NCBI RefSeq assembly: GCF_000023065.1
Contig: NC_012691.1
Span: 1,656,501-1,720,500 of the forward strand
Direction: 5' to 3'
Origin: Tolumonas auensis DSM 9187
GTDB taxonomy: Bacteria > Pseudomonadota > Gammaproteobacteria > Enterobacterales > Aeromonadaceae
DNA: 64,000 nt
Below are positions 26,507-31,517 of the stretch, piece by piece. How positions within the stretch are numbered: position 1 is the first letter of the stretch; the number at the start of each line of letters is the position of its first letter. The notes beneath the pieces are model-generated. The model was given only the letters and a program-made list of their open reading frames with translations. It did not search any database and had not been told where the DNA came from. Both the position numbers and the translations under genes were made by a program.

Positions 26507-26858
26507 AAGACACAATATCAAAGAAGATAAAGACATTAGGTAACATACAATAGGCTCAAAACCAGATCACGCTACGTAAAAAAGTGGGAAGAACCATAGC
26601 CAAATTCTGAAACTTTTCACGTAGGAACGCGGCACATAAGGACGCTAAGTGAGACAACCCGGATGAAAACAGAGTTTTATCGAAAGAACACAGTTTTGTG
26701 GCGAATTTATAAGGAAGGCACAAAAGGCTAGGCATGCATCTTTTAACTTAGATAGTTAATTTAACATAATATACATTATGCGAAATCAATTATACCTTGT
26801 AATACAATGTTTTTCCACAGATTTCATCCTTCGGGTCACAATGATTACTGAGGTTACC
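26507..26858. other. 352-bp gap without recognisable gene
   Basis: AT-rich sequence with stops in all frames. It contains one copy of the GATCACGCTACGT repeat (26565-26577) and an inverted TTTTCACGTAG (26614-26624). No RNA gene or convincing promoter is seen. It looks like decayed accessory DNA. Confidence 0.4.
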
Positions 26859-27107
26859 ATGTCACACACTGATAATGCATGAACAAATTCACGGATTCAG
26901 CAACAGCATTTGCAGCAAAACATCGTGCGCCAAATCAGCCCGAATGTGACACAGAAGCCGCAGCCCGTTGCTCGCATTGGTGAAGCATCACAGCTCAGTG
27001 CGCAGGAAAATAAGGAAAGAAACTGCAACTTGGCAATTCTCCGCTATTCACAAACTAATTCAGCAGAAGATAAACAACAGGTTTATAAGCTGTGCCCTGA
27101 AGAATAA
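26859..27107 (+). pseudogene. Small hypothetical gene interrupted by an in-frame TGA
   Basis: An ATG at 26859 preceded by a GAGG site starts MSHTDNA, then meets TGA at 26880-26882. Afterwards the same frame stays open for 75 codons to TAA at 27105-27107. That part is polar, helix-prone and Gln-rich (NSRIQQQHLQQNIVRQISPN, then AILRYSQTN). It looks like a real 82-codon gene with a nonsense change, though it may only be a fortuitous frame. No family is recognised. Confidence 0.35.
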
Positions 27108-27138: not shown

Positions 27139-27166
27139 AATGCCGATAAATTGCGTTATCGGCATC
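27139..27166. repeat. Inverted-arm recombination-like site, left copy
   Basis: AATGCCGATAA-ATTGCG-TTATCGGCATC: two 11-bp arms, ten positions of which are perfectly complementary, around a 6-bp centre. A second copy with the same centre lies at 31490-31517. Together they bracket the HD-GYP gene and the tyrosine recombinase. The architecture is that of a tyrosine-recombinase core site and recalls dif. Confidence 0.6.
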
Positions 27167-27227
27167 GTGATTATTATATGTAATTTATAGCTATACTCAG
27201 GTAAGGATATCCAGGGCGATCATATCT

Positions 27228-30164
27228 ATGCGGACCAGAATACCTCTCTATGTTCATATCGCGACCCTATTTCTCTTGCTATTCCTGGTATTAGGCTTCT
27301 CTCTGGTCTTTCAGGGATACCGGCAGACCCTCTCCGGCAACTTTGCGCATGAAAGACAGAATTTTGCTCACCAAAGCGCAGAAGTTGAACAATCACTGCA
27401 GCTGACCATCCGTCCGGTAAGCACTTCCCTACTGTTATACAGTCGCTCTCGTGCCGTAACAGCGCAAACATTAGAGCAGCGCCTTTCGGAATTGCCGCAA
27501 CTCACTGAACTATTACGCAGTAACGAAGCTGTATCTGCTGTTTATATTGGCTACAACAATGGTGATTTTTTCCTGATCCGAAAACTCACTATTCAGGCGC
27601 AACAGGCACTCCAGAAAAAAGCACCTGAAAATGCCCATTTTCTGGTGCAAAGCATTGATAGTTCTCAGGGCAAATCTGAAGGCATCTTCCTTTTTTATGA
27701 TGCGCAATTACGGCTGCTGGAATCCCGCGCGATGCCTGACTATGTCTTTGATCCACGGAGTCGGATCTGGTATCAGGATGCACAGCAGCATTCCGGGGTT
27801 GTCATGGCCCGCCCCTATATTTTCTATACCACGCAGGAACCGGGAAGTACGCTGGCGATCAAGGCAGATTCAGGTAATGCAGTAATCGGTGCAGATCTCA
27901 GTATGCAGAATTTGTCACAACTGCTGGCCAATATGCCGCGCCCGCAAGGTAGTGAACTGGTTATGTTTGATGATGAAGGGCAATTAATTGCGGCAGCCCG
28001 GGAGCTCACTGGCAATGTGAAAGATAGTCATACCCTGCCCCGGCTTGATTTGCTTAACGTTCCTATCCTGAAAAAACTGTATGAGGAAATGCCGAAGCAG
28101 AAACCAGCAATTGGAACGCAACAAGAATTAGACCTGCAACTGACCGATGATGCCCGCTGGATCGGTTATCTGACCGCCATGCCATCCGGTAGTGAACATA
28201 CCTACTATCTGAGTTTGCTACTTCCCACCGACTCACTTTATGCACCAGCCAGAAACAACGCTCTGGAAAGTACTTACGTAACCCTATTTATGCTGCTGAT
28301 TATGTTGCCTTGCGTCTGGTATGTCGCAAAACACACCGCACGTCCGTTATCGGCGTTGAAACAAAGTATTGAAGCTATCCGGAATTTCGATTTTGAAGAG
28401 GAAATTAAACCCCTGTCACGCATTCTGGAAATCAATGAATTAGCGGATGCAATGACCAGTATGCGGCTGACCATCCATAACTTTATTTCGATCGACAAAG
28501 CGTTAGTAGCTGAACACAAATTTGACCCTCTTTTGACCCGTATTCTGCAGGAGACGCTCAAGGTGGTCGCAGCCAGCGGTGGCGTGATTTATCTGCGGCA
28601 AGATAAAGACAAACGCATGGAACCGGTTCGGGCTCTGTGGCAACAAAATGAAATATCCGGGCTTTCCGGGTTCTCGTTGTCCGGGGAACAGGAACATTCG
28701 TTACGACCAGCCATCAATGGTCGTCAGGTCGCTCATCTGCTGGACGAAGCCTCCTGGCGGCGTGATTTTATGCCTCTGGCTCCCTTTGATGAACGTTACC
28801 TGTTAGTCGCCGAACCATTACTGAGTCGCCGAAAGGAAGTTATCGGCATTCTCGTCGTTGTGTTACTTCGCAACCGCGAAGCACGTGATATTAATGCGAG
28901 GATCAACCTGATTAGCGCGCTTGCCGGAACGTCAGCAGTCGCTATTGAAACCCAGCGATTAATCGAAGAGCAGAAACATTTACTGGAGTCGTTCATTGAA
29001 CTGGTTGCCGGCGCAATCGACGCGAAAAGTGCTTATACGGGCGGACACTGCCAGCGCGTACCTGAATTAACACGCATGCTTGCACAGGCAGCCTGTGAAC
29101 AACACGAAGGTCCGTTTACTGATTTTAATCTTGATGACGAACAATGGGAGGAACTACATATAGCCAGTTGGTTGCACGACTGCGGTAAAGTCACAACACC
29201 TGAATATGTCGTGGATAAAGCCACAAAACTGGAAATGCTTTACGACAGGATCCATGAAATCCGGATGCGTTTTGAAGTGCTGAAACGCGATGCCCATATT
29301 GCAGCACTGAATGAACAGTTGTCTGAGGCACAACGGCAAACCATCTCTGATTCTCTGCAATCCCTCTGGAAAGAACTGGATGAAGAATTTACGTTTGTTG
29401 CTGAGTGTAATCTGGGTAGCGAAGTTATGGCCACAGATCGACTTGAACGTCTTCGCCAGATAGCAAACCGTAAATGGATGCGGACGCTGGATGATCGTTT
29501 AGGTGTGTCGTATGAAGAGTTGCAGCGCAAAATGCAGGTTCAGGAGCAAACGCTCCCCTGCATGGAGCCATTGCTTTCTGATCGCCCGGAACATCTCATC
29601 CCCCGGCCAGTATCAGAACAACTCTCCAGTGACAACCCTTGGGGATTCAGGGTGCAGGTTCCGGAATATCTCTATAACCGCGGCGAGTTGTATAACCTGT
29701 CAGTGACTCACGGCACACTGACCGATGAAGAACGTTACAAGATAAACCAGCATATTATCCAGACCATCATAATGCTCAGTAAGCTGCCATTCCCGCAGCA
29801 TCTGAAAAATGTACCTGAGATTGCCGGCGGTCATCATGAAAAAATGGATGGTAGCGGTTATCCGAAACGCCTTGTGCGCGATGAGCTGAGCATCCCCGCC
29901 AGAATGATCGCCATCGCCGATATTTTTGAAGCCCTGACAGCCAGTGATCGACCTTATAAACCGGGCAAAACAACAAGTGAAGCACTTCGGATTATGCAAC
30001 GGATGGTGCAAAATAATCACATCGATCGCGAGCTGTTTGTTCTGTTTGTACAAAGCGGGATCTGGCGTGTTTATGCCGAACATTTTCTGCTACCGGAGCA
30101 ACGTACTCCTGTTGATCAGGAGGAACTGCTGGCGGGTATTACCGCAGATCGCCCAGCCGGTTGA
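27228..30164 (+). CDS. Membrane HD-GYP domain protein (predicted cyclic-di-GMP phosphodiesterase)
   Basis: 978 residues. A transmembrane helix (about 8-30) is followed by a periplasmic Cache-like sensor (about 40-340), a second helix (about 350-368), HAMP (370-425), GAF (430-585) and a C-terminal HD-GYP domain. HD-GYP motifs seen are the TGGHCQRVPEL histidine, HDCGK near 650, HHEKMDGSGYP near 870 and ADIFEALTASDRPYK near 900. The spacing between HDCGK and GSGYP is about 220 residues, far more than usual, so the catalytic domain carries a large insertion (charged, helical). The family hydrolyses c-di-GMP in response to a signal. The 3' end overlaps the recombinase gene by 26 bases. Confidence 0.88.
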   Translation: MRTRIPLYVHIATLFLLLFLVLGFSLVFQGYRQTLSGNFAHERQNFAHQSAEVEQSLQLTIRPVSTSLLLYSRSRAVTAQTLEQRLSELPQLTELLRSNEAVSAVYIGYNNGDFFLIRKLTIQAQQALQKKAPENAHFLVQSIDSSQGKSEGIFLFYDAQLRLLESRAMPDYVFDPRSRIWYQDAQQHSGVVMARPYIFYTTQEPGSTLAIKADSGNAVIGADLSMQNLSQLLANMPRPQGSELVMFDDEGQLIAAARELTGNVKDSHTLPRLDLLNVPILKKLYEEMPKQKPAIGTQQELDLQLTDDARWIGYLTAMPSGSEHTYYLSLLLPTDSLYAPARNNALESTYVTLFMLLIMLPCVWYVAKHTARPLSALKQSIEAIRNFDFEEEIKPLSRILEINELADAMTSMRLTIHNFISIDKALVAEHKFDPLLTRILQETLKVVAASGGVIYLRQDKDKRMEPVRALWQQNEISGLSGFSLSGEQEHSLRPAINGRQVAHLLDEASWRRDFMPLAPFDERYLLVAEPLLSRRKEVIGILVVVLLRNREARDINARINLISALAGTSAVAIETQRLIEEQKHLLESFIELVAGAIDAKSAYTGGHCQRVPELTRMLAQAACEQHEGPFTDFNLDDEQWEELHIASWLHDCGKVTTPEYVVDKATKLEMLYDRIHEIRMRFEVLKRDAHIAALNEQLSEAQRQTISDSLQSLWKELDEEFTFVAECNLGSEVMATDRLERLRQIANRKWMRTLDDRLGVSYEELQRKMQVQEQTLPCMEPLLSDRPEHLIPRPVSEQLSSDNPWGFRVQVPEYLYNRGELYNLSVTHGTLTDEERYKINQHIIQTIIMLSKLPFPQHLKNVPEIAGGHHEKMDGSGYPKRLVRDELSIPARMIAIADIFEALTASDRPYKPGKTTSEALRIMQRMVQNNHIDRELFVLFVQSGIWRVYAEHFLLPEQRTPVDQEELLAGITADRPAG

Positions 30165-31437
30165 TCAGTTTACCTGCTGCGGTTTCATGTCGTTCCGTTT
30201 TAGTGGTATGCAGATATTGTGATGTCGTATCGATACTGTCATGTCCGGCATCCGCCTGCACATGCGACAGTGGCCGGCCATTCAGATTAATGTCATGTGT
30301 AATCCCCGTATGACGAATACTGTGCGGCGTCATTTGCCGCATTTCCTGCGCGTCTTGCTCAAATCCATCATCCAGCGCCGAATCTGCGGCGGTCTGGATC
30401 AGATGATTGATCTCATCGCGGAGCTGCCGGATCCCTAAATTAGCATTCCGTAAGCCCACATCACGACCACGCCCAGCCGCTTTGTGACGCATGAATAATG
30501 GCGTATTTTCGTTCGGTGCCGGTAACGCAGCTAACCCCAGATATTCCCGGTAACGTTTCAGTGCACTCAATAATTGATTGGAAACCGCAACGGTCCGGCG
30601 TTTTCCACCTTTACTGACCGGAATAAAAAATCCCCAGACACCACTGTGACTATCACGCCGGAATTGGCCCATCACAGGAGAAAAACCAGGTCTGGCCGCG
30701 ACTTCTGAAATGCGCAGATAACAGCTGTACATCAAACTCACCAGAAACAGCGTCCGCTCATGCAGATCCGGCTGTTCAGCTGCCATGTTCTCTGCGGCAG
30801 ACATAATGTAAGACCACTGTAGTTCACTGAAGGCTTTGATGTTTTCATCATCATCCAGACTACGCGATTTCATCGGTTGTGACGCGAAACGGCTGTGTTT
30901 CATCCACATCATGGCCGGATTGCGCTCGGTATATTCCTCATTAATCAGATAACCATAAAATGATGATAATATTGCCATTTTTGTCTTTAATGCTTTATCA
31001 CTCAGACGATATGGCAACACCTGTCCGTTATCTTTTTTCCCCAGGAATGGTCGCCATAAAGGATTAGGCGCCCGTTCTCCCCATTCTTTAATCGTGACAA
31101 ATTGAGCAACGTTACGATATGCGATTAATTCAGCCGGCGGATCAAGACAGTAATCAACATACCGGTTCATCATACGGCGATTAATTTCAGCGACTGAAAT
31201 GCCTTCAACATCAAAACACCAATGCAGAAATGTGGTTAATTCGCTGCGGTAAGTTTTGTAATTATTCTCGTTGAAACGTTGTTCCGACAGCCAGTCGACC
31301 GCATGTTCATAGACCAGCGCAGCATCATTTACCTGGTTAATCGTGATGGCGGCTAAATGCTGATTAATGTTTGGGTTGCCTTCATCCAAATATTGAAAGG
31401 CATCAAACAATGGGATAACCGGCGGTAGATTTTGCAT
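30139..31437 (-). CDS. Tyrosine recombinase / phage-type integrase
   Basis: A 432-residue tyrosine recombinase with all catalytic residues: R242 in CYLRISEV, K near 274 in SKGGKRR, H-x-x-R near 373-376 in HSIRHTGI, H near 398 in AGHDSIDTT, and the tyrosine nucleophile in SQYLHT. The N-terminal half is a long core-binding region (residues 1-200). It should catalyse site-specific strand exchange. The inverted-arm sites at 27139 and 31490, with an identical 6-bp centre, are the obvious candidate substrates. Its stop lies inside the end of the HD-GYP gene. Confidence 0.9.
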   Translation of the reverse strand: MQNLPPVIPLFDAFQYLDEGNPNINQHLAAITINQVNDAALVYEHAVDWLSEQRFNENNYKTYRSELTTFLHWCFDVEGISVAEINRRMMNRYVDYCLDPPAELIAYRNVAQFVTIKEWGERAPNPLWRPFLGKKDNGQVLPYRLSDKALKTKMAILSSFYGYLINEEYTERNPAMMWMKHSRFASQPMKSRSLDDDENIKAFSELQWSYIMSAAENMAAEQPDLHERTLFLVSLMYSCYLRISEVAARPGFSPVMGQFRRDSHSGVWGFFIPVSKGGKRRTVAVSNQLLSALKRYREYLGLAALPAPNENTPLFMRHKAAGRGRDVGLRNANLGIRQLRDEINHLIQTAADSALDDGFEQDAQEMRQMTPHSIRHTGITHDINLNGRPLSHVQADAGHDSIDTTSQYLHTTKTERHETAAGKLINRLGDLR

Positions 31438-31489
31438 GACAGACTCTGATTATTTCTTATATTTTCATTATATATCAATGAGCTGATGC

Positions 31490-31517
31490 AATACCGGTAA
31501 ATTGCGTTATCTGCGTT
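31490..31517. repeat. Inverted-arm recombination-like site, right copy
   Basis: AATACCGGTAA-ATTGCG-TTATCTGCGTT. It has the same centre and 23 of 27 matching positions with the left copy at 27139-27165, in direct orientation. Its own arms are less perfectly symmetric than in the left copy. It lies 53 bases upstream of the recombinase start and 101 bases upstream of tyrB. Confidence 0.6.

What the first reader, a model, noticed from the sequence alone, without database searches (positions are those of the whole stretch)
27139..31517. Compact two-gene element: HD-GYP phosphodiesterase plus tyrosine recombinase between matching inverted-arm sites
Seen directly: two 28-bp sites 4.35 kb apart share 23 of 27 positions and an identical 14-bp core. 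Each has 11-bp arms around the same 6-bp centre ATTGCG, with arm ends ATAA/TTAT (GTAA/TTAT in the right copy), like dif/Xer sites. The left copy is a 10-bp perfect inverted repeat. Inside are only a c-di-GMP-type HD-GYP gene and an intact tyrosine recombinase, each starting 50-60 bases from its nearest site. Known: tyrosine recombinases act on inverted arms with 6-8 bp overlap. Inference: this is a minimal mobile or invertible unit carrying a signalling gene, or one mimicking the host Xer site.
Basis: partly seen in the sequence, partly recalled or inferred. Interest (0 to 1): 0.8.

Follow-up and report, generated by a model that had tools for sequence, protein, structure and literature searches.

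The report
Second dimer-resolution module beside dif
The two matching sites belong to an extra DNA recombinase that sits beside the standard chromosome-unlinking site dif, so these bacteria appear to carry two unlinking systems next to each other, and filamentous phages that insert at dif often bring a copy of the second system's site with them.

Summary
The sites are real; the two-gene mobile element is not. The left copy (27140-27165) is a perfect palindrome, ATGCCGATAA-N6-TTATCGGCAT; the right copy (31492-31515) is a decayed relic. The recombinase (Int) is a dif-linked chromosomal gene in Tolumonas, Aeromonas, Oceanimonas, Oceanisphaera, Shewanella and Marinobacterium. Of 33 genomes with close Int (window's own included), 29 have an exact site; of 28 others, none. 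Of 59 Int loci with dif in reach, 38 have the exact site upstream of int only, 19 between int and dif only, none both. HD-GYP is a passenger: beside int in 3 of 9 Int-bearing genomes of the genus. Int's family resembles Legionella XerL, a published single-recombinase dimer-resolution system: of 45 same-class genomes with a distant member, none passes the XerC cut-off. The window's clade keeps XerC, XerD and dif too. Dif-integrating filamentous phages often carry the second site. Best reading: a second, XerL-type dimer-resolution module beside dif. Recombination itself is not shown.

The parts
26759..26784 (-). Host dif (XerC/XerD site), TTCGCATAATGTATATTATGTTAAAT on the minus strand
   Evidence: pattern hit at G000:C1:1683259-1683284 (one mismatch to the search pattern); close to the Aeromonas hydrophila dif in a passage of PMC2731167
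27140..27165 (.). Intact Int site (second dif-like site): ATGCCGATAA-ATTGCG-TTATCGGCAT
   Evidence: only copy with up to 2 mismatches in the genome; exact site in 29 of 33 genomes with close Int
27228..30164 (+). HD-GYP protein, 978 aa (HD_5 match; dCache_1, HAMP and GAF_3 matches below Pfam cut-offs); passenger gene between site and int
   Evidence: HD_5 5e-56; beside int only in G000, G002, G005
30139..31437 (-). Int: XerL-like tyrosine recombinase, 432 aa; R228, K276, H372, R375, H399, Y408 present
31492..31515 (.). Decayed Int site upstream of int (4 arm mismatches, same centre ATTGCG)
   Evidence: perfect at this position in G003, G006, G009, G010
26910..27107 (+). Small ORF between dif and the intact site; relatives lie between dif and site in G005 and G007
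   Evidence: 73% and 60% identity
31618..32814 (+). Aminotransferase (TyrB-like, name from recall) gene: right-hand neighbour of the module in the genus
   Evidence: same neighbour in 7 of 8 fetched int loci of the genus (L071-L075, L077, L078; not L076, whose contig ends near int)

Best explanation
The recombinase and its palindromic site are a single-recombinase chromosome-dimer-resolution module of the XerL kind, kept at the replication terminus next to the ordinary XerCD-dif system. Int would bind both identical arms and exchange strands across the 6-bp centre between the two sister copies of the site when the chromosome is dimeric; this needs only one site per chromosome, near the point where FtsK delivers the terminus. 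Filamentous phages that integrate at dif through XerCD wedge between int and dif and often bring their own copy of the site; my inference is that this copy may then be the one kept while the int-proximal copy decays. In the window's lineage the kept site lies 0.36 kb from dif, HD-GYP has come to lie between it and int, and the old copy upstream of int is decaying. Shown: gene, site, location, conservation, the one-site pattern, catalytic residues, phage copies, and the class-wide scarcity of XerC/D where distant family members occur. Inferred: that Int binds and recombines the site, that this resolves dimers, and that FtsK is involved.
For: (1) Site and gene go together: of 33 genomes with Int at 63% identity or more (own genome included), 29 have an exact site and 2 more a one-mismatch site (G028, G036); of the 28 others (8 with a distant match) none has an exact site and one, G054, a one-mismatch hit. 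(2) Arms fixed, centre free: CGCAAT, CCCCAT, CTGGAT, CTGTAT, ATAACG, TGCTAT and others. (3) Location: of 80 non-identical Int loci, 59 have dif 3' of int in the fetched stretch; 38 have the exact site upstream of int only, 19 between int and dif only, 0 both, 2 a one-mismatch site; site and dif are 267-1614 bp apart in 55 of 57. (4) Int groups by genus in a tree. (5) Catalytic residues unchanged in all aligned rows, 111 close and 31 distant. (6) Of 45 same-class genomes with a family member at E 1.2e-45 or better, 0 pass the XerC cut-off and 42 have no match to the XerC model at 1e-60; of 20 Int-negative controls 14 pass and 19 match. (7) G042 and G052, in the window's order, have a CCRATA-N8-TATYGG palindrome exactly once, beside the family member. 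(8) 4 of 8 plasmid or large-replicon loci read have such a palindrome near the gene. (9) Published: the XerL dif has uninterrupted 10-bp arms unlike other dif sites, and XerL is necessary and sufficient for recombination there (PMC9765430).
Against: XerC and XerD are both present in the window's genome and XerC-model matches in all 33 (two each in 32), so a second resolver is not needed on paper. No recombination product was seen. L. pneumophila XerL itself was not compared; the link runs through a Legionella fallonii plasmid homologue (34% identity). Only 4 of 31 distinct distant loci scanned (G042, G052, G089, G387) show the CCRATA palindrome in the fetched stretch, as do 4 of 8 plasmid loci, so site-gene linkage is not general in the wider family. 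Two of the 33, G008 (70% complete) and G026, show no site. In G003 int and its site lie about 130 kb from dif, though a one-mismatch site stays 1.1 kb from dif. The tree groups Tolumonas and Oceanimonas with Shewanella rather than with Aeromonas, so descent is clean within genera but not between families. The 118 loci were found by the exact site, so site conservation counted on them is biased; the 33-genome count is not. G042 has a divergent Xer-like protein (211 bits).
Confidence: 0.7

Rival explanations
1. Int and its site are a domesticated or selfish element parked at dif, used to manage dif-integrated phages (for example to delete or excise tandem prophages) rather than to resolve dimers.
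For: Different filamentous phages carry the site; in G022 two fully compared 7,726-bp tandem units are identical, each bounded by identical sites; where two exact sites occur in one IMG/VR stretch the centres differ in 9 of 9, as if matching pairs were lost.
Against: The three phage junctions read lie in dif, not at this site. G022 phage A and G024 have the host's centre and still keep phage and int. G023 has a 7.5-kb insertion with a Rep match and no second site. Distant family members occur where XerC/D is missing, which phage control alone does not predict.
Confidence: 0.17
2. The palindrome is an operator for a repressor of int (or of phage rep), not a recombination site.
For: It lies some 40-110 bp upstream of int in many genomes and about 51 bp upstream of rep in one phage lineage; the window's HD-GYP starts 62 bp from it.
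Against: In 19 of 59 loci int has no upstream site and the exact copy lies between int and dif; in phages B and T it follows zot; one site per genome near dif is odd for an operator.
Confidence: 0.06
3. One reading: a two-gene mobile or invertible element carrying HD-GYP between att sites.
For: Direct repeats with the same centre ATTGCG flank HD-GYP plus int, as integration of a circle at the site would leave; this may be how HD-GYP arrived.
Against: Int and site stay without HD-GYP; the right site is decayed; Int groups by genus; no site without int was found among 61 relatives. The aminotransferase locus of the two int-less genomes of the genus, G001 and G004, gave only partial matches, apparently at contig ends.
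Confidence: 0.05

Closest known systems
XerL/dif of Legionellales (Nicholson et al. 2022, PMC9765430)
   Same: Single tyrosine recombinase of similar size (catalytic Tyr387 there, Tyr408 here), far from XerC and XerD, site with uninterrupted 10-bp inverted arms, terminus location, site shared with integrating elements
   Different: No XerC/D homologues are known in Legionellales; xerL lies over 400 kb from dif in L. pneumophila; here int, its site and XerCD's dif sit within about 1.6 kb in most loci, and XerC and XerD are present too
XerS/difSL and XerH/difH
   Same: Recombinase gene next to its own terminus site, one protein for both arms
   Different: Those stand in for XerCD and their arms are only partly symmetrical (PMC9765430 discussion); Int scores 22.4 bits to the XerS model (cut-off 267); no XerH model was tried
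XerC/XerD-dif
   Same: ATAA-N6-TTAT inner core, terminus location
   Different: Two recombinases and asymmetrical arms; Int scores 58.6 bits to XerC (cut-off 335) and 57.5 to XerD (cut-off 330)
IMEX filamentous phages such as CTXphi (recalled; passage of PMC5357621)
   Same: Phages beside int have half-dif junctions
   Different: They also carry a copy of a different recombinase's site, which I did not find described in the searches named in the full report

Membership tests
XerL-type single-recombinase system | Tyrosine recombinase with complete catalytic set | tested here: met
   R228, K276, H372, R375, H399, Y408 in 111 of 111 close and 31 of 31 distant rows aligned (some rows from the same species; 3 matches with a stop inside the aligned stretch left out)
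XerL-type single-recombinase system | Cognate site with long uninterrupted inverted arms and short centre | tested here: met
   10-bp arms, 6-bp centre; that Int acts on it is inferred
XerL-type single-recombinase system | Site at the replication terminus | tested here: met
   0.36 kb from dif; KOPS strand pattern, cumulative skew peak about 10 kb away
XerL-type single-recombinase system | Sequence kinship with L. pneumophila XerL | tested here: inconclusive
   Only a Legionella fallonii plasmid homologue compared (34%, E 5e-83)
XerL-type single-recombinase system | Sole dimer-resolution system, no XerC/XerD | tested here: not met
   XerC and XerD both present in G000; XerC-model match at 1e-70 in all 33 genomes with close Int, two matches in 32
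XerL-type single-recombinase system | Recombinase necessary and sufficient at the site; loss gives filamentation | not testable with these tools
   Needs a bench assay
XerC/XerD orthologue | Score over the NCBIfam cut-off | tested here: not met
   58.6 of 335 and 57.5 of 330 bits
Mobile element integrase | Patchy distribution and tree unlike host groups | tested here: inconclusive
   one full copy per close genome and four genus-level groups supported 100/98 or better, but one plasmid copy nests in Shewanella and branching between families does not follow the hosts; distant members are on many plasmids
Mobile element integrase | Two intact att sites flanking cargo, empty site in relatives | tested here: not met
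   one intact site in the window; 0 of 59 loci with both exact sites; no int-less exact site among 61 relatives

The most novel reading that the evidence does not exclude
Several genera carry two independent chromosome-dimer-resolution systems, XerCD-dif and an XerL-type one, about 1.5 kb apart, a living intermediate between XerCD hosts and lineages where the XerL type has replaced XerCD; filamentous phages that occupy dif supply a fresh copy of the second site that takes over from the host's copy.
Probability: 0.5. Interest if true: 0.87.

Novelty: new variant of a known kind. Interest (0 to 1): 0.77.

Why it matters
Chromosome dimer resolution is usually described as one system per chromosome. 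Here a second recombinase with its own strictly kept site sits beside dif in well-known genera (Shewanella, Aeromonas), while distant relatives occur in genomes that lack XerC/D. That makes the switch from two-recombinase to one-recombinase systems testable in living strains, widens the XerL kind beyond Legionellales and onto large plasmids, and shows that dif-integrating phages carry a second host recombination site whose role is unknown.

Tried and rejected
Two-gene mobile element: rejected, see rivals. Operator: unlikely, because the site changes side of int. Phage integration at the palindrome: rejected for the three junctions read, which fall in dif; my early thought that the tandem units in G022 used Int's site as att was wrong for that reason. 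Empty site lacking int: the aminotransferase locus in G001 and G004 gave only partial matches, no answer. Fixed orientation of the centre relative to dif: dropped, Shewanella and Aeromonas differ. Rfam gave only tRNAs. Exact palindromes in Cupriavidus and Burkholderia (6 loci looked at) have no close Int or dif in the stretch (one weak 24% hit in L193, 3.5 kb away) and are probably a different thing, so the pattern is not exclusive to this system; 36 of the 118 loci had neither close Int nor dif in the stretch. Difference of centre between host and phage sites (9 of 9 IMG/VR two-site stretches; G009, G019 and G022 phage B differ, G022 phage A and G024 match) was noted but not tested against chance.
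Full report
What is there. The window holds a perfect palindrome, ATGCCGATAA-ATTGCG-TTATCGGCAT, at 27140-27165, and a second copy at 31492-31515 with the same 6-bp centre and four changed arm positions. Between them are an HD-GYP gene on the plus strand and a 432-residue tyrosine recombinase (Int) on the minus strand, overlapping at their 3' ends. The host's dif lies 0.36 kb to the left, at 26759-26784. Six of seven KOPS-like motifs point toward that spot, and the cumulative GC skew of the window peaks some 10 kb to the left of it and then falls. XerC (360 bits) and XerD (390 bits) are both encoded in the same genome, so Int is a third Xer-like protein. The genus is taken as Tolumonas because the same-genus genome G005 has a contig of the same length as a named Tolumonas osonensis contig.

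The recombinase is a resident. In 61 genomes (own included) Int matches in 41 at E 0.001 or better; 33 have it at 63% identity or more, one full copy each (G011 has an extra fragment). A tree of 77 rows gives supported groups for Tolumonas (100/100), Aeromonas (100/100), Oceanimonas with Oceanisphaera (100/98) and Shewanella (100/99, with one Shewanella plasmid copy inside); between families the branching does not follow the hosts, since Tolumonas and Oceanimonas group with Shewanella and not with Aeromonas. All rows aligned, 111 close and 31 distant, keep the catalytic residues. By sequence Int is far from XerC or XerD (58.6 and 57.5 bits against cut-offs of 335 and 330). The predicted model (mean pLDDT 80.8, pTM 0.63) is nearest to XerA, integron integrase, XerH-difH, Tn1549 integrase and Cre-lox structures, with modest TM-scores (about 0.3-0.4 by query length).

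The site follows the close recombinase. Of the 33 genomes with close Int, 29 carry TGCCGATAA-N6-TTATCGGCA exactly and two more with one mismatch (G028, G036); G008 and G026 have none. Of the other 28 genomes, 8 of which have a distant Int match, none has an exact copy and one (G054) a one-mismatch hit; two-mismatch hits occur in both groups and are at chance level. Arms are fixed while the centre varies, as expected of a recombinase site whose partner is its own sister copy. 69 of these have Int at 50% identity or more and 63 have dif (up to 4 mismatches) in the stretch, always within 1,725 bp of the site; 36 have neither.

One site, on either side of int. After removing identical int sequences, 80 Int loci remain; many were found by the exact site, so this set speaks to position, not to how often the site is kept. 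In 59 of them dif lies 3' of int in the fetched stretch: 38 have an exact site upstream of int and none downstream, 19 have none upstream and one between int and dif, none has both, and two have a one-mismatch site (L065, L068). Site and dif are 267 to 1,614 bp apart in 55 of 57 cases; the other two (G019, G023) have about 7.5-8.2 kb between int and dif. Four phage-bearing genomes do have two copies: G009, G022 and G024 two or more exact ones, G019 an exact and a one-mismatch one. Upstream of int the site is mostly perfect or gone: best arm match 0 mismatches in 56 of 88 loci, 6 or more in 28, 2-5 in 4 (not made non-redundant). The window's right copy, with 4, is one of the few intermediates. 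This speaks against a simple operator of int and suggests that what is kept is one site near dif.

HD-GYP is a passenger. It adjoins int in G000, G002 and G005, that is 3 of 9 Int-bearing genomes of the genus. In G003, G006, G007, G008 and G009 no match to it lies beside int in the fetched stretch (only 1.7 kb available in G007); in G010 the contig ends there. G006 has int 77 bp from dif. Aeromonas relatives of HD-GYP (45-54%) lie elsewhere, for example at 0.87 Mb against int at 2.27 Mb in G016. The equal centre of the two sites around HD-GYP and int would fit arrival by integration at the site followed by loss of the older int, but I have no evidence that decides it.

Phages. In G009, G019, G022 and G024 filamentous phage genes lie between int and dif or the contig end (Rep and Zot or pI-like families tested for G009 and G022 proteins, the other two judged from like ORFs). 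Three junctions read (G009, and phages A and B of G022) are half-dif joined to phage DNA, so these phages appear to use XerCD at dif, in the manner of CTXphi (recalled; passage). Yet they carry their own copy of Int's site: two lineages about 25 and 45 bp from their att, just after zot; another about 0.7 kb away and 51 bp before rep. In G022 two fully compared tandem units of 7,726 bp are identical. Of 65 IMG/VR stretches with the exact site, 50 have Rep or Zot matches, some weak, 26 of those also show host int, and 15 show neither. G023 carries a 7.5-kb insertion with a Rep match but no second site, so the site is common but not universal in such phages. In G028 the dif-side site lies beside a Rep remnant, which fits the idea that dif-side sites come from phages; that idea is inference.

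Wider family. Distant homologues (27-43%) occur in 57 of 368 other genomes of the class. I tested the 45 best of these (E 1.2e-45 or better; the 12 weaker ones were not tested) and the 20 Int-negative genomes printed with the XerC model, which in hosts with both also picks up XerD: 0 of 45 against 14 of 20 pass the curated cut-off, and 3 of 45 (G042, G189, G356) against 19 of 20 have any match at 1e-60. The one control without is a 0.4-Mb genome. G042 and G052, in the window's own order, have no XerC or XerD over cut-off (G042 has a divergent one at 211 bits) and no dif at two mismatches, but have a family member with a TCCRATA-N8-TATYGGA palindrome that occurs once in the genome, beside the gene; eight other genomes searched have none. 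Against general linkage, only 4 of 31 distinct distant loci scanned show such a palindrome in the fetched stretch (G042, G052, G089, G387). Int relatives were found in 1,250 of 72,556 plasmid records at E 1e-15 against 1 of 50,697 phage records at 1e-10. Of eight plasmid or large-replicon loci read, four have such a palindrome within about 1 kb of the gene: pSbal01, the A. mediterranea plasmid (recombinase only 38% identical, arms identical to the window's), L. fallonii plasmid II and a Pseudoalteromonas 843-kb replicon; the V. campbellii, P. damselae, S. xiamenensis and P. nitroreducens loci do not show it. A ninth record is, by its size, an Aeromonas chromosome filed as a plasmid.

Comparison with the literature. 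Nicholson et al. 2022 (PMC9765430; outline, abstract, parts 1-3 of 7 of the text, discussion, one methods section and passages seen) showed that L. pneumophila XerL alone recombines a terminus site with perfect 10-bp arms and that loss causes filamentation; the methods describe the homology search as made against Legionellales. A passage of Carnoy and Roten 2009 (PMC2731167) gives an Aeromonas dif like the one used here. The passages I saw of PMC3025954 and PMC5357621 mention no second system in these genera. Eight literature searches listed nothing that I recognised as a description of a dif-linked second recombinase; subscription journals are largely missing from the library.

Verdict. The anatomy and distribution fit a second, XerL-type dimer-resolution module beside dif, present together with XerCD. 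Membership in the XerL system proper is not claimed: being the sole resolver was tested and is not met, direct kinship with L. pneumophila XerL was not tested, and activity is unshown.

Noticed in passing
L072 and L136 (G003): dif with a one-mismatch site lies about 130 kb from int with its perfect site, in inverted arrangement; a large terminus inversion is likely.
   Followed up: partly
L388 (Shewanella baltica plasmid pSbal01): The plasmid carries a chromosomal-type int and site with the Shewanella centre ATAACG; its Int nests inside the Shewanella chromosomal clade.
   Followed up: partly
L193, L210, L212, L217, L230, L237: Cupriavidus and Burkholderia contigs hold the exact palindrome without close Int or dif; in L230 and L237 it lies near a gene that looks like imuA (recalled, not tested).
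   Followed up: partly
L389, L390, L391: Vibrio, Photobacterium and S. xiamenensis plasmid Int loci have near-palindromes ending in TTGAA or ATGAA around a 6-bp centre, perhaps a second site type of this family, perhaps chance.
   Followed up: no
Distant Int relatives occur on 576 Klebsiella plasmid records, possibly plasmid multimer resolution.
   Followed up: no
L177: A contig binned as Hyphomicrobiales reads as a filamentous phage with this site about 70 bp from a gamma-type dif; probably misbinned.
   Followed up: no
L079:3643-3918: Fragment of a second int gene (52%) about 4 kb from the intact int in G011, perhaps a relic of an older copy.
   Followed up: no
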